From: Phycisphaerae bacterium
GTDB lineage: Bacteria; Planctomycetota; Phycisphaerae; Sedimentisphaerales; Anaerobacaceae
Reading direction: 5' to 3'
DNA length: 64,000 nt
Assembly (NCBI GenBank): GCA_012744475.1
Contig: JAAYBV010000097.1
Span: 1-64,000 of the forward strand
In this document: positions 41,050-48,523 of the stretch, piece by piece
Numbering within the stretch: position 1 is the stretch's first letter
Layout of the letters: every line of letters begins with the position of its first letter
Made by a program: the position numbers and the translations under genes
Notes under the pieces: generated by a model
What the model saw: the letters and a program-made list of their open reading frames with translations, nothing else
The model's database searches: none
Told to the model about the DNA's origin: nothing

Positions 41050-42987
41050 TCACTCGCTCGAACCGGAAACGGCCTTCCTGACCTGCTGATTGAACATCCG
41101 CAACTGAACGGCGATTGCCCCGAGCGCCCACTCGATGTAGTGCAGGCGGTGTGCGGGCTTGCGGTGGCGTTCGATCATCAACCCTTGCTGAGCCGCATTC
41201 ACGAACCGGGCGATCACCTGCGAACTGATCTGCGTGGGCTGGGCCGCCCATCTCTTCAGTTGTTCGTACTGTCGTTGCAGCGCCCGGTCGGACCGGAGTT
41301 GCTCGGCGCTGAGATAGTCACCCGGATTCAGGGCCAGTTGCAGACCCTTCAGACACAGGATCAGCGGCTCGTAATTGGCCCTCCTCTCCAACCGAATGAA
41401 CTTGTATTGCTGGATGTAGGTCGTAGCCTGGGCCGGCGGCTTGTCGCCGATCTCATCGCCCCCGAGGTACCAGTTGCGCCGGCTGCGTCGGGCGAAGACC
41501 AGCTCTTCGCCCACGCTGCGCTGGGTGATCTCGTCATGGCCCATGCGGGACACCCAGAGGCCACCGGGTCTTCGTTCGGGCCCGCCTCCCAGTGCCAGCA
41601 GGCACTTGACGAACCCCAGAGGCAGGATGGTCTGCTCCTTGACCCTGCTCTTGAGCAGTTGGAAGGACAGGTGGAGGCTGTGCGGCTGAACCTGGAAGAA
41701 GCTGACCAACTCGTGGATCAACTGGTTCAGCAACCAAGGGTCGGAGCTGGCCGGCCGGGAAAGCTCGCCGGCAATGCTCAGCCTTCCGGGCGCCAGTTCG
41801 AGAAACCCCGAGGTGCGTCTTCGCTGTCCGGAACCGGTGTGGTCGTCGATGTAGCCTCCCAGCTTCCAGCAGAGCACGTCGAGGCAGAAATCGTAGAAGT
41901 ACCGGAATCCGTCGTACGCCGGATCCAACGCTTTGCAGATGCTGCGCCTGGATTCGATGGCATCGGGTCCCAGGCTGCTCAGCTCCAGCTCGAAGCCGAG
42001 CGGGATAAGTCCCGGCTGGAGGTTGGAGCGAATCCGATGCAGATGGGACTCCGCCACGCGCGAATCGAAGATACTGCGCGAAGCGCGCACGGCGTATTTG
42101 ACATAGTCGATCAGATCCAGGTTCTCCGACGGCATCATGTTCAGGCCCCGTTCGATGATCAGGTCCACCACGCTGCGGTTGGCGTTGATCATCCGCAAGG
42201 CCGCCACCAAACTGATCGACCGGGCGAAAAACCGCTCGCTGGTCCGCATGTGCTCCAGGTCGAAACGGTATCGGCTCTGGATCTGCTCGTCGAACTCGTT
42301 GAGCAACACCTGTCGCAGCACCAGCGACAGGTAATTGCGCAGGTATGGCTGCGCCTCCGGATCGTTCAGCAGATGGCGGATGCTCGGTCGTGGCCGGTCC
42401 AGTTCGCGTTCCAGCCAGTAATCGCTGATGGCATCCGTGTGGTAGTGGCTCATGACCAGATCGCGTTCGGTCGTGGCCAGCAGCTCGCGTTCGGCCAGGC
42501 GCTCCAGTTCGGCGTCGACGGTCCGCTCGCCGGGACGCGTGTGTCTCTGGAGGAACCGGTTGATGCGCTTGCGAAGCCACAGTTCGTGGATGAGATTGAC
42601 GTGAAACCGGTCGCCGAAGCGTGTGCGCATCGATTCGGGCGTCACGAGATAGGCCTGGGCCTCGACCGTCCCATGCGCGGTGTAGACATGGACCGTCTCC
42701 CTCTGGTAGCGTTTTCCTTCATATCGGTCGATCTCCGCCATCGCCGAGAGGGGCACGTCATGAATCACGAATCCTTCGATCCTGGCGTCCGGCGTCTTGA
42801 CGGCGTAGTAATACACGTTGTCCGGGCTGACCCGCCGATGGCCCGGCAGAAAGGCCGGCTCGGCAAACAACGTCTTGACGTCGATCTTCGAGGGCTTGCG
42901 CGTGAAGGCGAAGCCGCTGACCGATTGGAAGATGCGACTGTCTCGAAGCGATCCGTAGATGAAGAGGTTGACTTTTCGCTTGTGCAT
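41050..42987 (-). CDS. GGCT-domain protein fused to an amidoligase-like C-terminal region
   Basis: 645 aa from ATG 42987; the in-frame sequence upstream overlaps the GT2 gene and is rejected. Residues 6-115 are a gamma-glutamylcyclotransferase/AIG2-like domain (LFIYGSLRDSRIF; catalytic-type Glu90 in DRYEGKRYQRETV). The long remainder contains GFELELSSLG (331-340), FLELAPGRLS (395-404) and PHSLHLSFQL (435-444), in the order of the E-x-E, E-x-R and H-x-H-x-S type motifs of glutamine-synthetase-fold amidoligases; GGCT partners are known for that family. This part is inferred. It would make and break amide bonds on a peptide or metabolite. Last gene of a minus-strand cluster, 42 nt after GT2. Confidence 0.6.
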   Translation of the reverse strand: MHKRKVNLFIYGSLRDSRIFQSVSGFAFTRKPSKIDVKTLFAEPAFLPGHRRVSPDNVYYYAVKTPDARIEGFVIHDVPLSAMAEIDRYEGKRYQRETVHVYTAHGTVEAQAYLVTPESMRTRFGDRFHVNLIHELWLRKRINRFLQRHTRPGERTVDAELERLAERELLATTERDLVMSHYHTDAISDYWLERELDRPRPSIRHLLNDPEAQPYLRNYLSLVLRQVLLNEFDEQIQSRYRFDLEHMRTSERFFARSISLVAALRMINANRSVVDLIIERGLNMMPSENLDLIDYVKYAVRASRSIFDSRVAESHLHRIRSNLQPGLIPLGFELELSSLGPDAIESRRSICKALDPAYDGFRYFYDFCLDVLCWKLGGYIDDHTGSGQRRRTSGFLELAPGRLSIAGELSRPASSDPWLLNQLIHELVSFFQVQPHSLHLSFQLLKSRVKEQTILPLGFVKCLLALGGGPERRPGGLWVSRMGHDEITQRSVGEELVFARRSRRNWYLGGDEIGDKPPAQATTYIQQYKFIRLERRANYEPLILCLKGLQLALNPGDYLSAEQLRSDRALQRQYEQLKRWAAQPTQISSQVIARFVNAAQQGLMIERHRKPAHRLHYIEWALGAIAVQLRMFNQQVRKAVSGSSE

Positions 42988-43028
42988 AGACGGCTCGATC
43001 TGCCCCGTCGACCGACCGCTGCGTCCGG

Positions 43029-43772
43029 TCACGGTTCCCGTACGATGCGCCGTCGCAGTTGCCAGAGTTCCCGGAAGGCCCTCAGGATCACACGGAGGCT
43101 GGCTCCGGTCTGCCGCCCGGCGGTGCGTGGATAGTGGTGCACCCCCCGCTGCGTGATCGTGTACCCTTTTCGGGCGGCCCGCGCGAGAATCTCCGTGTCG
43201 ATCAGCGCCCCGGTGCTTTCCATCTTGATCCGGTCGAAGATGCCGCGGCGATACAGCTTGAAGGCGCAATCCACGTCGCGGACCTTCAGCGAGAACACCA
43301 GACCGGTGACCTTTGTCCAGAGCCACCCGTTGATCTTGCGGACGACGTTGTCCCGGCGGTTCATTCGGTAGCAACTGACGATGTCGTAGTCGTTCATCAG
43401 CGGCAGCAGCGCCGGCATCTCGCCAATGTCGAACTGGCCGTCGCCGTCGGTGTAGAAGACCAGTTCCTTGCGCGCCGCGCGGAAACCGGACTGGAGGGCG
43501 GCGCCGTAGCCGAGGTTGCGCTCGTGGTGAACGACGCGAACCCGCTCGTTGCCCGCGGCGATCTCATCGGCGATGCGTCCCGTCTCGTCGGCGCTGCCGT
43601 CGTCCACGATGATGATCTCGTAATCGGCGCCCAGCCCTTCGAGCACACGGACCGCCTGTTTGGCCACGCGCGCCACGTTGGCCTGCTCGTTGTAGCAGGG
43701 AAAGAAGACCGAAATGGATACGGCCGACGGCGACTGCCCACCCGGCGATGTCGGCCTGTCCGCCTGGACCAT
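43029..43772 (-). CDS. Family 2 glycosyltransferase, polyprenyl-phosphate sugar transferase-like
   Basis: 247 aa. FFPCYNEQANVARV, IIIVDDGSADETG, NLGYGAALQSGF and YTDGDGQFDIGE are typical of the DPM1-like GT2 group that loads a sugar on polyprenyl phosphate. Four-residue acceptor region VDCAFKLYRR is present. It starts 3 nt after the stop of the 1000-aa membrane protein gene, so the two are translationally close. Such enzymes supply lipid-linked sugar to membrane transferases, which fits the neighbour. Confidence 0.9.
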   Translation of the reverse strand: MVQADRPTSPGGQSPSAVSISVFFPCYNEQANVARVAKQAVRVLEGLGADYEIIIVDDGSADETGRIADEIAAGNERVRVVHHERNLGYGAALQSGFRAARKELVFYTDGDGQFDIGEMPALLPLMNDYDIVSCYRMNRRDNVVRKINGWLWTKVTGLVFSLKVRDVDCAFKLYRRGIFDRIKMESTGALIDTEILARAARKGYTITQRGVHHYPRTAGRQTGASLRVILRAFRELWQLRRRIVREP

Positions 43773-43775
43773 GGC

Positions 43776-46700
43776 TCACCACCTCTTCCTGTCGGAGATG
43801 CGGTCCCTCTCGATCAGATAGCGTTTCATCTGGTCCTCACAGGTCCGGGCGACCTCGCGGTTGCCCTGAGCCTCCGCCACCTGCTTGAGCCGCACCATCG
43901 CCAGACGCGCCGCTTCGAGCCGCAGGTTATAGCCATCGTGATTGGCGTAGCTGGACCTGTTCTTCTCGAACTTCGTGGTGTACTCGACGCAGATCTCGCT
44001 GACCCGCTGCTGAAGCTCGGGGTACCGAGCGGCAATCACCAGCAGATCGAGCATCGGCCCGGGCGACGGATCGAGGTGGAACGCCTTGATGACCATGTCC
44101 AGACCCTGCTGTCTCTGACCGGCCTCGGTGGACAGCAGAAGGTTGTGCCCGACCGAGAAGTTGGCGGCGAATTCGTCCGGATACGTGGTCCGGCCGGTGA
44201 ACATGCCACTGAACAACTGCTTGCCCTGCTCGGTCGTCACATTGACGAACAGCTTCTGCTTGTTGTTGAGGAAGACCAGACGCCAGTTGGGGTCGTACTC
44301 GAGGGCGCGGACGAAATCCTTGTCGAACTGGTTGGCCGGCATCAGGATCACCCAGACGTCGAATTTGTCGAGCTGCTCGGTCACCCACTGCCCGATCTCT
44401 CTCAGTTCGGCGGCGGTGGGGTCCCGTCCCTCGTACGCGGCCCTTCTGGCGGCCGGTCCGCCTGCCAGGATCTCGGTCCAGAGGTCGAACGTCCGGGTAT
44501 CGTAGGCGGCCTGGGCCCGGCCATCCATGAACAATTGCAGAGGCGTCCGTCCCGTGTTGGGATCGGGGTCCTGGCCCCAGGCGACAAACCCGCCCTCCGT
44601 CCAGTAGTTGAACATATTGCCGGCCAGCTTGTTCTCGCGGATGAACTGGCAGGCGTAGAACGGCTTGGCATCGGAGGCGGTCATCCGCATGAAGACCGAC
44701 GTCAGCTTCGGGTCCGCCGGCCAGTAATCCAGGTAGATCAGCTTGAACCTCAGCCCTACCCACAGGCCGAACCCAACGACAGCCACCAACACCAGTAGCG
44801 ACGCGACCTGCCACGCCGGTTTGAGGAGCATGCGGGCATCCACCTGCTTGGCCCCTCCGCCGTACCTGTCGGTCCCAAGAAACATGGCGAACAGGGGAAA
44901 CGACGAGAACGCCAGCAACGTTCCGAACGCCAGGAGCCAGAAACGCGGTTGAATCTGCGTGGGCACACCCGGCACCGGGAAGAACAGCCAAGGCCAGAAC
45001 AACAGACGCCACAATCCCAGGACGGCCAGGGCCCCGGCCAGCCCGATCAGAAGCAGGCGTTCTACGGTTTCGTCGCGATCCGCATCGGACGTTCGGGCGG
45101 CGCCGCGCAGATCCGCAATGGTCAGGATGGAGGCCACGATGCGCTGTACCAGCAATGCGATCACGGGACAGGCGACAAGAGCAGCGATCGGGATGAATCG
45201 TCGCGAGCGTACGGCCATGTAGACGGTCACCGCGGCCACGATGATGAAAACGACATCGATTTGCGGCGCGGCGGGCGCCTCGGCCTTCCCGGTGCGCTTC
45301 TTCGGAGATGGTTCCGCGAGCGTCGCACGCACCGACAGAATCGACCAGACAATCAGAGCGAGCCAGGCGAGGATGTACATCGTCAGAAACGGAATAGCGG
45401 TGCCAACCGGGTTGGTCCAGTCCAGGGCCCGATGCCACTCGTGAACGTCGCGCCAGCGTTCGGCGTGCTTGCTGACCGAGATGACAAAGGTGTGCGTCAG
45501 ATTGGTCAGGTGGAACGGATTGAAGACAACCATCGCGACGAACGCGACCGCTCCGGCGCCGACCGTGTGCATAAGGGTCCGGCGATCCAGCACGCGAAGG
45601 GCCTTGTCTCGGAGAGACAGAACCGCCGCCCCGAACGCCATGGACAGCACGAACATGCCCACGCACGTCCAACGTCCGCCGGCCGCGTGATCGGCAAAGA
45701 TCCTCAGGATACGATCGTTCATCGTGTTGGGTGGCGCGGGGAAGTACCGCGCCAGCAGTAGAAGGAACACGATGCACATTGCGACGACGTGCAGCGCCGT
45801 CAGGGCACTGCCGCTGATCTGCCGGTGCAGAACGGCCGCGATGCTGCCCCCGACGGCCAGCACCAGAAGCACAACCATCCAGTCGCCGATGCCGGAAGCG
45901 CCGGCGTTGGTCTGCGAGAAATACTCGGCCATCAACTCGGCCCGGCGACCGAGGAACTGATGGGTCAGGCCAGAGAGGACCAGCCACGTCAGAATGCTAT
46001 AAGCCGCCACCAGCCAACGTTTCGGAAGGTGCATGATCAGATGCCAGCCTACGAACGGGACCAGCACGATGAAAGCGTAAACATAGCCGCCGTGTACGTT
46101 GGACCAGAAGACCACCACCGGCACGATCAGCCAGATGTAGAGTGCGTTCCTGTAGCTGGTCAGGACCAGGATCAGGACAAAGACCGCCACCAGCAGGTTC
46201 GAGAAGCCGGCCGGACGGATGTCGAAGAAGGACCGCCCGATGAACAAGGCAAAACCCGAAGCGGCAGCGGCCAGGGCGGGGTTCACACCCAACAGCCGGG
46301 CGGTGAAGTAGATCGCGGCAACCGCCAGGAAGTACACGGCAAATTTCCAGAACACCAGCGCATCGAAGTAAGGCTCCTGCTCCGAACCGAACATTGTGGT
46401 CAGGCGGTAGAAGATGACGTGTGTCAGCCAGTTCTGGTTGATCCAGCCGGTCGGATGCCACTTGCGAACGGTTTCGAGGCCTACCTTCTCGGTGATCCAG
46501 CGAGCCCAGCCCGGCCAGGTCGCGACCTCGGCCTCCGTCGGGCCGGCGCGGTGGCTGTTGGCGCTGAAAGGCTCGACGGTGTCCACGCCGTGGTTGACAA
46601 AGTGCCGGCCGCACGCCATCGCCACCCAGGTGTCGCCGGCGGCCACCATATGCGTGCAGGCGTGAAAGGCGAAGATCAACATCGCCAGCCAGCCAGCGGC

Positions 46701-46778
46701 CACCACCCAAGCGGACCATGCCGAGCGTCGTTCGGTGGTTAACAGTATGTCCCCCTCGCCGGTCTCATTTGCCGCCAT
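43776..46778 (-). CDS. Large polytopic membrane protein, possible lipid-linked sugar transferase
   Basis: 1000 aa from ATG 46778 (GGAAAG upstream). The first 690 residues hold about twelve or more transmembrane helices, with an early HMVAAGDTWVAMACGRHFVNHG loop that is rich in Asp, Arg and His, as in GT-C enzymes. The last 300 residues are soluble, with WTEGGFVAWGQDP and LFMDGRAQAAYDTRTF, and a TPR-like helical end. I do not recognise a named family. The next gene is a polyprenyl-sugar-type GT2, so a role in transferring lipid-linked sugars outside the membrane is inferred. Confidence 0.75.
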   Translation of the reverse strand: MAANETGEGDILLTTERRSAWSAWVVAAGWLAMLIFAFHACTHMVAAGDTWVAMACGRHFVNHGVDTVEPFSANSHRAGPTEAEVATWPGWARWITEKVGLETVRKWHPTGWINQNWLTHVIFYRLTTMFGSEQEPYFDALVFWKFAVYFLAVAAIYFTARLLGVNPALAAAASGFALFIGRSFFDIRPAGFSNLLVAVFVLILVLTSYRNALYIWLIVPVVVFWSNVHGGYVYAFIVLVPFVGWHLIMHLPKRWLVAAYSILTWLVLSGLTHQFLGRRAELMAEYFSQTNAGASGIGDWMVVLLVLAVGGSIAAVLHRQISGSALTALHVVAMCIVFLLLLARYFPAPPNTMNDRILRIFADHAAGGRWTCVGMFVLSMAFGAAVLSLRDKALRVLDRRTLMHTVGAGAVAFVAMVVFNPFHLTNLTHTFVISVSKHAERWRDVHEWHRALDWTNPVGTAIPFLTMYILAWLALIVWSILSVRATLAEPSPKKRTGKAEAPAAPQIDVVFIIVAAVTVYMAVRSRRFIPIAALVACPVIALLVQRIVASILTIADLRGAARTSDADRDETVERLLLIGLAGALAVLGLWRLLFWPWLFFPVPGVPTQIQPRFWLLAFGTLLAFSSFPLFAMFLGTDRYGGGAKQVDARMLLKPAWQVASLLVLVAVVGFGLWVGLRFKLIYLDYWPADPKLTSVFMRMTASDAKPFYACQFIRENKLAGNMFNYWTEGGFVAWGQDPDPNTGRTPLQLFMDGRAQAAYDTRTFDLWTEILAGGPAARRAAYEGRDPTAAELREIGQWVTEQLDKFDVWVILMPANQFDKDFVRALEYDPNWRLVFLNNKQKLFVNVTTEQGKQLFSGMFTGRTTYPDEFAANFSVGHNLLLSTEAGQRQQGLDMVIKAFHLDPSPGPMLDLLVIAARYPELQQRVSEICVEYTTKFEKNRSSYANHDGYNLRLEAARLAMVRLKQVAEAQGNREVARTCEDQMKRYLIERDRISDRKRW

Positions 46779-46803
46779 TCGCGCACTTTCCAACAGGTTT
46801 CGG

Positions 46804-47100
46804 CTAATAACACAGAAGAAGAGTACTTCTTCTTCCGTCTATCGTCAAGAACGCCCCCCGGCCTGTTGCTCTTTGTGGAAAAGCACCCACAGAACGGGCC
46901 CGGCCGTCAAAACCGCCAAGAGCCTGCCACGCCGCAATGAAGACCTCCTGCGTCAGATCCTCGGCCAGACTCGCCTCGCGCGTCAGAAACACCAGGAATC
47001 GGTACACCGAGCCGTAATGGGCATCGATCACGGCTTCATACGCCTCGCGGCGACCCTCACGAAGGGCAGAAAGAATCCTTCGCTCAGCCTTGTCCCGCAC
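46804..47100 (-). pseudogene. Truncated ECF sigma factor, region 2 only
   Basis: 98 codons from GTG 47100, after GGAGG at a good spacing. Residues 8-65 match sigma-70 region 2 (AYEAVIDAHYGSVYRFLVFLTRE; LAEDLTQEVFIAAWQAL, read in two parts). After GGFDGRA the frame loses similarity and stops; region 4 is absent from all frames downstream. The stop lies about 25 nt from the start of the 1000-aa membrane protein gene. It is a remnant or a very short sigma-like protein. Confidence 0.7.
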
Positions 47101-47332: not shown

Positions 47333-48523
47333 CTACTGGCTCAGCCACTGCTCCAGCCGGTCGAGGCCCTTCTTGATGTGTTCCATCGAACAGGCGAAGC
47401 TCAGGCGCACGTTGTCGCCGCAGCCGAACGGCAGGCCCGGGACCAGGGCCACGTTGGCCTGCTCCAGCAGGGCCGAGGCGAATTGCATGCTGTCGCCGAT
47501 CCTGGTGCCGCCAATGGTCCGGCCGAAGTGCGCGGAAACGTCCGGGAAACAATAGAACGCGCCCGCCGGCTCGGCACACCACACGCCCTTGATGCCATTG
47601 AGCCGGTCGGCCATGTATTTGCCGCGTTTGGCGAACTCGACCCGCATCTTCTCGATCGTCGCATCGGCCTGCGGGCCGAAGGCGGCAATCGCTGCGTACT
47701 GGGCAAACGTCACAGGGTTCGAGGTCATGTGGTCCTGAAGACGGGACATCGCCTTGATGACGTCCAGTGGTCCGGCGGTGTAGCCCAGACGCCAGCCGGT
47801 CATGGAGAACGCCTTGCTCAGGCCGTTGAGGGTCAGCGTCCTTTGGAACGCGTCGTCGCTCAGGGCCGCGAAGCTGATGAACTTCGAGTCACCATAGACG
47901 AGCTTCTCGTAGATTTCATCGGACATCACGCAGACGTTGGTGCCTTCGAGCACCTTGGCCACGGCCCGCAGTTCGTCCGGCGTGTACATGAACCCGCCGG
48001 GGTTGCTGGGCGAGTTGAGAATGAGCATCGCGGTCTTGGGCGTGATAGCTTTTTTGAGCTGCTGCGGCGTGATCTTGTAGCTGTTGGCCTTGTCCGTCTC
48101 GACGATCTTCGTCACCGCGCCGGCCAGCTTGATCGCCTCGGGATACGTCACCCAGTAGGGTCGGGGCAGCAGCACCTCGTCGCCCGGATCGAGCACCGCC
48201 TGCATCGCCTCGTAGACCGAGTGCTTGCCGCCGATGTTGACGACGATCTGCTCGGGCGTGTACTTGAGCCCGTTCTCCCGTTCGAGCTTCTTGGCGATCG
48301 CGGTCCGCAGCTCGATGATGCCCGCAGCGGGCGTGTACTTGGTCTTGCCCTCTTTCAGGGCCCTGATTGCCGCTTCCTTGATATACTCCGGCGTATCGAA
48401 ATCCGGCTCGCCCGCTCCGAAACCGACCACATCGATCCCCTGGGCCTTCAGCTCCTTGGCTCGGGCCGTCACGGCGATCGTTGCCGAAGGCGGAACGCTC
48501 TTGGCTCTCTGGCTGATCTTCAT
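47333..48523 (-). CDS. Class I pyridoxal-phosphate aminotransferase, aspartate aminotransferase type
   Basis: 396 aa from ATG 48523. GAGEPDFDTPEYIKEAA and TKYTPAAGI at the N-terminus, NSPSNPGG, MSDEIYEKLVY, and the PLP lysine K237 in NGLSKAFSMTGWR are typical of the I-gamma aspartate/prephenate aminotransferase group. RLSFACS near the end contains the Arg that binds the substrate carboxylate. It transfers amino groups between aspartate and 2-oxoglutarate or prephenate. An in-frame extension to 48745 is not supported by an SD. Confidence 0.93.
   Translation of the reverse strand: MKISQRAKSVPPSATIAVTARAKELKAQGIDVVGFGAGEPDFDTPEYIKEAAIRALKEGKTKYTPAAGIIELRTAIAKKLERENGLKYTPEQIVVNIGGKHSVYEAMQAVLDPGDEVLLPRPYWVTYPEAIKLAGAVTKIVETDKANSYKITPQQLKKAITPKTAMLILNSPSNPGGFMYTPDELRAVAKVLEGTNVCVMSDEIYEKLVYGDSKFISFAALSDDAFQRTLTLNGLSKAFSMTGWRLGYTAGPLDVIKAMSRLQDHMTSNPVTFAQYAAIAAFGPQADATIEKMRVEFAKRGKYMADRLNGIKGVWCAEPAGAFYCFPDVSAHFGRTIGGTRIGDSMQFASALLEQANVALVPGLPFGCGDNVRLSFACSMEHIKKGLDRLEQWLSQ

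What the first reader, a model, noticed from the sequence alone, without database searches (positions are those of the whole stretch)
41050..47100. Possible undescribed surface-modification cluster
In one direction and tight spacing: region-2-only sigma remnant, 1000-aa multi-pass protein with a GT-C-like first loop, DPM1-like GT2 (3 nt away), then the GGCT/amidoligase-like fusion (42 nt). Lipid-linked sugar production, sugar transfer outside the membrane and amide chemistry would together make an exported glyco-amide modification that I cannot match to a named pathway.
Basis: inference. Interest (0 to 1): 0.65.

Follow-up and report, generated by a model that had tools for sequence, protein, structure and literature searches.

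The report
Conserved glycosyltransferase pair with fused ligase
In one order of planctomycete bacteria a membrane sugar transferase, the enzyme that probably loads its lipid-linked sugar, and a two-headed enzyme that can probably both make and break glutamyl amide bonds are kept side by side, but genome comparison shows that these are two separable modules rather than one pathway.

Summary
The genes are real and correctly placed. The membrane protein (MP) and GT2 form a stable pair in Sedimentisphaerales: at most 600 nt apart in 37 of 38 loci holding both. GT2 resembles ArnC/DPM1-type polyprenyl-phosphate sugar synthases. MP, hit by no Pfam or NCBIfam model, is a GT-C transferase by predicted fold (DPY19 Z 16.6, STT3 Z 16.3, PMT Z 15.6). 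The third gene fuses a gamma-glutamyl cyclotransferase (GGCT) to a divergent carboxylate-amine ligase of the PafA/GCS/GS fold. Core catalytic positions of both halves are kept in 82 of 84 aligned homologues. The sigma "remnant" is a deletion of an ECF sigma intact in relatives. The operon is confirmed; the listed rows of my literature searches do not describe it. One "glyco-amide" pathway is not supported: MP/GT2 occurs without the fusion (families f2, f4, f5), and 31 Phycisphaerae genomes outside the order carry the fusion, none with a strong MP match. In 20 of their neighbourhoods neither MP nor GT2 lies beside it. No exported acceptor stood out. I read two modules: an extracytoplasmic glycosylation pair, and a cytosolic enzyme that may add and remove gamma-glutamyl groups.

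The parts
47333..48523 (-). class I aminotransferase (aspartate-aminotransferase-like, 396 aa), usual first gene of the block in relatives
   Evidence: Aminotran_1_2 E 8.7e-79; upstream of MP on the same strand in 41 of 80 loci, within 600 nt in 34, and in 32 of the 41 loci; start chosen by length in relatives
46804..47100 (-). ECF sigma factor remnant (region 2 only); region 4 and the anti-sigma-like gene seen in relatives are missing
   Evidence: Sigma70_r2 E 1.2e-10; resembles intact 177-188 aa orthologues only to about residue 72; intact sigma plus small membrane protein in L069 and L102
46820..46848 (-). conserved promoter-like leader of MP: TTGACG, 17 nt, TACTCT
   Evidence: GTTCTTGACGATA block identical in 6 of 6 near loci, window included; not listed by the consensus scan, so an inference
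43776..46793 (-). membrane protein MP: GT-C fold glycosyltransferase with OST/DPY19-like outer dome (about 705-852) and helical-repeat C terminus (861-1005)
   Evidence: model pLDDT 85, pTM 0.86; DPY19 Z 16.6, STT3 Z 16.3, PMT Z 15.6, PglB Z 13.7; no Pfam, NCBIfam or PDB sequence match
43029..43772 (-). GT2 family polyprenyl-phosphate sugar synthase-like enzyme, no membrane segment
   Evidence: PF00535 E 9.8e-31; nearest solved ArnC E 2.1e-21, then sll0501, DPMS; D58, D109, D111 invariant in 24 sequences; hydropathy
41050..42987 (-). 645-aa fusion of GGCT, helical middle and carboxylate-amine ligase
42628..42987 (-). gamma-glutamyl cyclotransferase (AIG2/GGACT-like) domain, residues 1-120, Y11-G12 and Glu90 invariant
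   Evidence: GGACT E 1.6e-11; 2g0q Z 13.3, human GGCT 3cry Z 11.9; Glu90 in 84 of 84 aligned homologues
41053..42012 (-). carboxylate-amine ligase (GS fold) domain, residues 326-645
   Evidence: Dop Z 13.1, PafA Z 12.9, GshF Z 12.3, YbdK Z 12.2, GS about 10; whole GxExE motif at 331-335 in 82 of 84

Best explanation
Two modules share what looks like one transcription unit. Module 1: GT2 loads a single sugar from a nucleotide sugar onto polyprenyl phosphate at the inner face of the membrane. After flipping by an unidentified carrier, MP, a GT-C enzyme whose closest solved folds are protein glycosyltransferases (DPY19, STT3, PMT), transfers that sugar outside the membrane to an acceptor, most likely an exported protein. 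Module 2: the fusion protein is a cytosolic bifunctional enzyme. Its C-terminal GS-fold domain uses ATP to join a carboxylate (by family precedent the gamma-carboxylate of glutamate) to an amine. Its N-terminal GGCT domain releases gamma-glutamyl groups as 5-oxoproline, so that one chain can make and undo the same kind of bond. Shown here: gene order, conservation, folds of the models, conserved positions, separability of the modules. Inferred: co-transcription, substrates, direction, acceptor, any functional coupling of the modules.
For: MP and GT2 at most 600 nt apart in 37 of 38 loci that hold both, and in 68 of 69 named loci with MP and GT2 upstream of the fusion gene; the two sets share genomes. 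GT2 relatives ArnC, sll0501 and DPMS (NCBIfam neighbours all below their cut-offs), with D58, D109 and D111 invariant in 24 sequences. MP model pLDDT 85; the first 26 rows of the fold comparison are GT-C enzymes or chains of OST-containing complexes. 55 aligned MPs keep D54, R187, D191, E452, R531/R532 and W731-T-E-G-G735, at places that by my reading match GT-C loop motifs (PMC6801728 and PMC10154233, passages). Fusion: both folds found; Glu90, GxExE, D381, E397, H436, H439, R481, R504 and R532 in 70 of 70 order members, 3 of 3 f12 and 9 of 9 f16 sequences aligned. Separability.
Against: MP has no sequence-level link to STT3: no Pfam hit, no PDB profile hit to a GT-C chain, and hhalign against six planctomycete STT3-like proteins gave nothing. 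Foldseek gave no MP match below E 0.001 (best 1.1e-3), and its match of the fusion to PafA is weak (E 0.027). No flippase gene was recognised in the cluster. The ligase half has no Pfam hit and no profile match to phage Amidoligase_2-type proteins; its evidence is fold plus motifs. A ligase and a cyclotransferase in one chain would run a futile cycle unless regulated. Envelope-type genes lie downstream in relatives: GT9 in 30 of 80 loci and a WaaP/Kdo-kinase-like gene in 7 of 80, so the acceptor may be lipopolysaccharide rather than protein. Two of 41 fusion-bearing genomes of the order (G026 and G030, both incomplete) show no MP.
Confidence: 0.6

Rival explanations
1. MP and GT2 decorate lipopolysaccharide or another surface glycan, as ArnC/ArnT and the Gtr three-component systems do, not protein.
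For: GT2's nearest solved relatives are ArnC. ArnT is among MP's fold matches (Z 10.4). GT9 follows downstream in 30 of 80 loci and a WaaP/Kdo-kinase-like gene in 7 of 80. Three-component systems are described as widespread (PMC11127046, passages).
Against: MP's best fold matches are protein glycosyltransferases with the outer dome, 3 to 6 Z units above ArnT. In the window the GT9 gene sits beyond an opposite-strand NUDIX gene, and no GT9 lies beside the cluster in the four f7 and three f4 loci.
Confidence: 0.3
2. One reading: all genes form one exported glyco-amide modification pathway.
For: In the class draw all 30 Sedimentisphaerales genomes with a strong fusion match also have MP; among 41 fusion-bearing genomes of the order draw 39 do. 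The genes are tightly spaced.
Against: 31 of 61 fusion-bearing genomes of the class draw have no strong MP match and 16 of 46 MP-bearing genomes lack the fusion. In 20 neighbourhoods outside the order the fusion gene has no MP, GT2 or Alr beside it. The fusion protein has no membrane segment.
Confidence: 0.08
3. The ligase half is no longer a ligase but a regulatory or binding domain, and the fusion protein is only a gamma-glutamyl cyclotransferase.
For: In two f15 homologues the ligase residues D381, E397 and H439 are lost while the GGCT glutamate stays. Sequence divergence is strong.
Against: In 82 of 84 aligned homologues the whole GxExE motif, D381, E397, H436, H439, R481, R504 and R532 are kept; other tested places (H383, S441, K529, N554) vary.
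Confidence: 0.12
4. MP carries out C-mannosylation-like chemistry: its top fold match is DPY19, the donor would be polyprenyl-P-hexose, and bacterial C-glycosylation of tryptophan would result.
For: DPY19 Z 16.6 with 486 aligned residues; a monosaccharide polyprenyl-phosphate donor is implied by the GT2 neighbour.
Against: DPY19 and STT3 rows are tied in Z and PMT is 1 below. C-mannosylation is stated to be restricted to metazoa and alveolata (PMC6801728, passage). The acceptor is not testable here.
Confidence: 0.08

Closest known systems
DPY19 C-mannosyltransferase and STT3/OST (GT-C)
   Same: multi-pass fold with a large first outer loop, outer dome after the last membrane helices, conserved acidic and arginine positions in loops; polyprenyl-linked donor expected
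   Different: no sequence similarity detected; the WWDYG place reads YWTEGG by my reading; extra helical repeats at the C terminus; bacterial
Gtr-type and pentofuranose three-component periplasmic glycosylation systems (PMC11127046, passages)
   Same: polyprenyl-phosphate sugar synthase next to a GT-C transferase
   Different: no flippase gene recognised in the cluster; MP has an OST-like dome; no profile match to a named GT-C family
GGCT/GGACT/AIG2 gamma-glutamyl cyclotransferases
   Same: fold, YG(S/T) motif and glutamate at the catalytic place (Glu90)
   Different: fused to a 520-residue helical plus ligase part
Carboxylate-amine ligases: PafA/Dop, GCS2/YbdK, GshF, GS
   Same: GS fold, GhExE signature, conserved acids, arginines and histidines
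   Different: sequence not recognised by Pfam; GGCT and helical domains in front
Amidoligase_2 (PF12224) and ligases encoded beside a separate Aig2 GGCT gene in Firmicutes (PMC2588565, passage) and phages (PMC3890496, PMC11253131, passages)
   Same: the same two activities linked by genome context; GxExE and histidine motifs
   Different: here one polypeptide; no profile match between the ligase parts; chromosomal and conserved in several Phycisphaerae families

Membership tests
GT-C glycosyltransferases (MP) | GT-C fold: TM core, large outer loop after TM1, outer domain | tested here: met
   Z 16.6 to 13.2 to DPY19, STT3, PMT, ALG9, PglB, AglB over 364 to 489 residues; predicted model, not a solved structure
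GT-C glycosyltransferases (MP) | DxD/ExE-like acidic motif shortly after TM1 and conserved Arg in a late outer loop | tested here: inconclusive
   D54 and R531/R532 invariant in 55 sequences, but a lone D, not DxD; placement by reading, not by superposition
STT3/PglB/AglB (PF02516) | Pfam STT3 profile | tested here: not met
   no Pfam hit at E 0.1; G000 has no STT3 match while four archaeal controls rang
STT3/PglB/AglB (PF02516) | WWDYG motif (recalled) | tested here: not met
   the place that I take as equivalent reads YWTEGG
DPY19 C-mannosyltransferase | C-mannosylation of WxxW sequons | not testable with these tools
   needs an enzyme assay
DPY19 C-mannosyltransferase | Pfam-level similarity | tested here: not met
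   no Pfam hit at E 0.1
Polyprenyl-phosphate sugar synthases (GT2) | GT2 family with catalytic Asp motifs | tested here: met
   PF00535; D58, D109, D111 invariant in 24 sequences
Polyprenyl-phosphate sugar synthases (GT2) | transfers sugar to polyprenyl phosphate | not testable with these tools
   closest solved relatives ArnC, sll0501 and DPMS suggest it; no NCBIfam equivalog cut-off is reached
Gtr-like three-component system | flippase gene (GtrA, SMR or MATE) in the cluster | tested here: inconclusive
   no such family among those recurring in seven or more loci; a DUF2062 gene recurs in 7 loci, beyond the GT9 gene in those I looked at; GtrA-like families were not searched for
GGCT/GGACT (PF06094) | profile above cut-off, YG(S/T) motif and catalytic Glu | tested here: met
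   45.2 bits against a cut-off of 22.8; Glu90 in 84 of 84
Carboxylate-amine/ammonia ligase superfamily (GS fold) | fold | tested here: met
   Dop, PafA, GshF, YbdK Z 12 to 13; GS and GCS Z about 10; Foldseek alone is weak (PafA E 0.027)
Carboxylate-amine/ammonia ligase superfamily (GS fold) | GhExE on strand 1 (as defined in PMC2588565, section 5 part 1 read) | tested here: met
   whole motif at 331-335 in 82 of 84
Carboxylate-amine/ammonia ligase superfamily (GS fold) | [HD]x[NH] on strand 4 | tested here: inconclusive
   H436 in 84 of 84, H439 in 82 of 84, spacing H-x-x-H not exact
Carboxylate-amine/ammonia ligase superfamily (GS fold) | two active-site arginines near strand 5 | tested here: inconclusive
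   R481 and R504 in 84 of 84; their place in the active site was not superposed
Amidoligase_2 (PF12224) | Pfam profile or profile-profile match | tested here: not met
   none in hmmscan at E 0.1; hhalign probability 0.3%; no match in 61 genomes, where however no control rang
ECF sigma factor (46804-47100) | regions 2 and 4 | tested here: not met
   region 2 only; region 4 missing

The most novel reading that the evidence does not exclude
Sedimentisphaerales carry a previously unnamed family of bacterial protein glycosyltransferases of the DPY19/STT3 type, fed with single sugars by a dedicated polyprenyl-phosphate sugar synthase. Beside it lies a bifunctional enzyme, found in several Phycisphaerae families, that reversibly adds and removes gamma-glutamyl groups on an amine, peptide or protein: a writer and an eraser in one chain.
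Probability: 0.22. Interest if true: 0.8.

Novelty: new variant of a known kind. Interest (0 to 1): 0.52.

Why it matters
If right, it adds a GT-C family invisible to Pfam and NCBIfam profiles that joins the protein-glycosyltransferase fold group, in a bacterial order for whose glycosylation the rows listed by my searches gave no study. It also adds a natural fusion of two activities that, in what I read, genome context had linked only as separate genes (carboxylate-amine ligase and Aig2 GGCT). A one-chain maker and breaker of gamma-glutamyl bonds would make the open question of what these ligase/GGCT pairs act on directly testable with a single purified protein.

Tried and rejected
Sigma gene as part of the system: rejected. 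It is present before MP in 12 of 80 loci, intact in the five orthologues that I aligned, and a deletion remnant in the window.

Exported acceptor nearby: ten gene families recur in seven or more of 41 loci. They are MP, GT2, fusion, aminotransferase, NUDIX, GT9 merged with a WaaP-like kinase, IleRS, alanine racemase, ECF sigma and DUF2062 (Pfam of examples). None looks like an acceptor. Families in four or fewer loci were not annotated and no signal-peptide prediction was made.

Fusion as PF12224 member: tested with nine phage proteins (PF12224 is noted for the query phage's protein; the other eight are its tblastn relatives, eight of the 313 matching records, chosen from 25 listed). hhalign gave nothing for the ligase, GGCT or helical parts. 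PF12224 in 61 genomes found nothing, but no control rang, so that search alone proves nothing.

MP as STT3: sequence-level tests failed. Two first attempts to pick STT3 reading frames gave antisense or partial frames and were redone.

Promoter: the TTGACG-17-TACTCT site is conserved, but the consensus scan did not list it, so it stays an inference.

The helical middle of the fusion protein (124-322) was not folded alone; its fold is untested. Gene calls by my simple ORF picker can miss or misplace genes; counts rest on tblastn.

Literature: the rows listed by the searches (capped lists, 1,720 papers in one case) hold no paper on this cluster or on the fusion, by title and abstract start. Iyer 2009 is not held and is known to me only through other papers' citations. 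PMC4973528 (passages) gave nothing on this family.

Full report
WHAT IS THERE. The window lies in a 5.7 Mb, 118-contig genome. Named relatives are MAGs labelled Sedimentisphaerales, Phycisphaerales, Phycisphaerae or Planctomycetota (titles); I call the order Sedimentisphaerales on that basis. MP to GT2 is 3 nt and GT2 to the fusion start is 41 nt.

CONSERVATION AND ORDER OF GENES. In 61 genomes of the order (60 relatives and the window's own), MP is found in 56, a GT2 match at E 1e-30 or better in 56 (in G024 only a 38% identical match) and the fusion in 41. Two fusion-bearing genomes, G026 and G030, both incomplete, show no MP. Forty neighbourhoods plus the short L046 were examined. Where both MP and GT2 lie in the stretch, their matches are at most 600 nt apart in 37 of 38; the exception is L082 with 836 nt. 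A second set, sharing many genomes with the first, is the 80 best of 119 named loci found with the fusion protein. There GT2 lies upstream on the same strand in 72 and MP within 600 nt before GT2 in 68. Of the eight loci without GT2, three have under 350 nt of upstream sequence and one starts inside Alr. Three have 1.3 to 5.3 kb and no GT2 (L125, L158, L134), and one has MP directly before the fusion without GT2 (L128). In L142 MP is 3.4 kb away from GT2. The usual block reads aminotransferase, (ECF sigma), MP, GT2, (alanine racemase), fusion. The aminotransferase is upstream of MP in 41 of 80 loci, the sigma in 12 of 80; several contigs end too early to tell.

ALANINE RACEMASE. Between GT2 and the fusion, 14 of 80 loci carry an Alr gene (Pfam of three examples). 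It also follows GT2 in f2 (5 of 6 loci) and f4 (3 of 3), where the fusion is absent. In G076, of another family in the class, Alr directly follows MP without a GT2.

SEPARABILITY. In a draw of 248 Phycisphaerae genomes a strong fusion match (E below 1e-60; a few cut by contig ends) is in 61: 30 inside the order and 31 outside it, in f12, f15 and f16. All 30 inside the order have a strong MP match (E below 1e-50). Of the 31 outside, none has, and five show only weak similarity, E 6e-4 to 1e-18. I assume that both calls drew the same 248 genomes. MP is strong in 46 genomes, of which 16 lack the fusion: seven f2, two f4, four f5, one f14, and G008 and G247. Twenty neighbourhoods of the fusion gene outside the order (4 to 20 kb) contain no MP, GT2 or Alr match; GT2 was not sought genome-wide there. 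In a phylum draw of 246 genomes the four fusion hits are all in the order. Strong MP likewise: four of 199, all in the order. The fusion and the MP/GT2 pair are therefore distinct units that became neighbours within Sedimentisphaerales and stayed so.

MEMBRANE PROTEIN. No Pfam, NCBIfam or PDB sequence match (the profile search lists only unrelated chains at E 0.1 or worse). A model from 55 aligned sequences has mean pLDDT 85 and pTM 0.86. Foldseek puts OST subunits and PglB first, with E 1.1e-3 to 2.4e-2 and probability 0.99 to 1; none is below E 0.001. The second aligner gives DPY19 Z 16.6 (486 residues), STT3 Z 16.3, Pmt Z 15.6, PglB Z 13.7, AglB Z 13.5, ArnT Z 10.4 and EmbC/AftD about 9 to 10. 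Its residues 705-852 match the AglB C-terminal globular domain alone (3vu0, Z 7.8, rmsd 2.6, 113 residues), and residues from about 861 on match helical repeats including TPRs (Z about 8). Both values are within the range that may be a common arrangement. So it is a GT-C enzyme by fold; membership in the STT3 or DPY19 family is not shown. Invariant D54, R187, D191, E452, R531/R532 and WTEGG stand, by my reading, where GT-C enzymes carry loop motifs (PMC6801728 and PMC10154233, passages seen). No superposition was possible.

GT2. Glycos_transf_2. NCBIfam neighbours, all below cut-off, include ArnC, a haloarchaeal dolichyl-phosphate hexose transferase and PpgS; solved relatives are ArnC, sll0501 and DPMS. 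No membrane segment. Asp58, Asp109 and Asp111 are invariant in 24 sequences. A polyprenyl-phosphate sugar synthase next to a GT-C enzyme is the logic of known three-component systems (PMC11127046, passages). A flippase was not recognised in this cluster.

FUSION PROTEIN. 645 aa, 55 to 84% identical in 69 order members aligned (of 80 available). Model pLDDT 86.9, pTM 0.87. N-terminal residues match GGCT/AIG2 structures (Z about 9 to 13). The C-terminal 320 residues match Dop, PafA, GshF, YbdK, GS and GCS (Z about 9 to 13); in Foldseek alone the PafA match is E 0.027. PMC2588565 (section 5, part 1 read; passages) defines the ligase superfamily by GhExE, conserved acids, an [HD]x[NH] motif and two arginines. 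It also names a ligase family found beside a separate Aig2 GGCT gene in firmicutes. I aligned 84 homologues: 70 of the order, window included, and 14 of the 20 fetched outside it. Glu90, H436, R481, R504 and R532 are in 84 of 84. The whole GxExE motif, D381, E397 and H439 are in 82 of 84; the two exceptions are the f15 copies L202 and L203. H383, S441, K529 and N554 vary. Hmmscan and profile comparison with nine phage Amidoligase_2-type proteins found no link, so I do not file it under PF12224. By fold and motifs it works like a member of the wider superfamily.

SIGMA REMNANT AND LEADER. Orthologues of 177 to 188 aa precede MP in relatives. In the two loci that I read (L069, L102) a small single-pass protein that looks like an anti-sigma factor follows them. 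The window frame resembles them only to about residue 72, then continues into sequence that in relatives lies in the leader just before MP. I read this as a deletion. The leader holds a block GTTCTTGACGATA, identical in six of six near loci, that looks like the start of a sigma-70 promoter. The scan did not list the site; its second hexamer is poor.

JUDGEMENT. What remains is a well-conserved glycosylation pair with a GT-C protein not recognised by profiles, and a two-headed ligase/cyclotransferase. Both functions are inferred from fold and conserved residues. The rows listed by the searches describe neither. PMC3890496 and PMC11253131 (passages) concern phages in which ligase and GGCT are separate genes.

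Noticed in passing
whole genome G000 and family f1: No alanine racemase (PF00842) match in 34 of 37 f1 genomes, including the window's 99.6% complete genome (other f1 genomes are 68 to 99% complete), although D-Ala-D-Ala ligase family matches are in 61 of 61. In most f2, f3, f4 and f7 genomes the only Alr match lies beside GT2 in this cluster. The source of D-alanine in f1 is unexplained.
   Followed up: partly
L202:9089-11140 and L203:3831-5966: Two f15 homologues of the fusion protein have lost ligase residues (D381, E397, H439) but keep the cyclotransferase glutamate.
   Followed up: partly
46820-46848: Conserved leader block before MP in six of six near loci, possible promoter TTGACG-17-TACTCT; a terminator-like inverted repeat at 46814-46833 overlaps it.
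   Followed up: partly
L069:6759-7184 and L102:3958-4329: Small single-pass protein after the intact ECF sigma, perhaps its anti-sigma factor, missing from the window.
   Followed up: no
L177: A contig labelled Candidatus Kuenenia stuttgartiensis carries a Sedimentisphaerales-type cluster; probably a wrong label or bin.
   Followed up: no
L243 (G076, family f14): MP directly followed by Alr and no GT2 match, outside the order.
   Followed up: no
42562-42618 (residues 124-142 of the fusion protein): Stretch FGDRFHVNLIHELWLRKRI is nearly invariant in the order, yet the model is least sure at 126-132; outside the order it is only partly kept.
   Followed up: no
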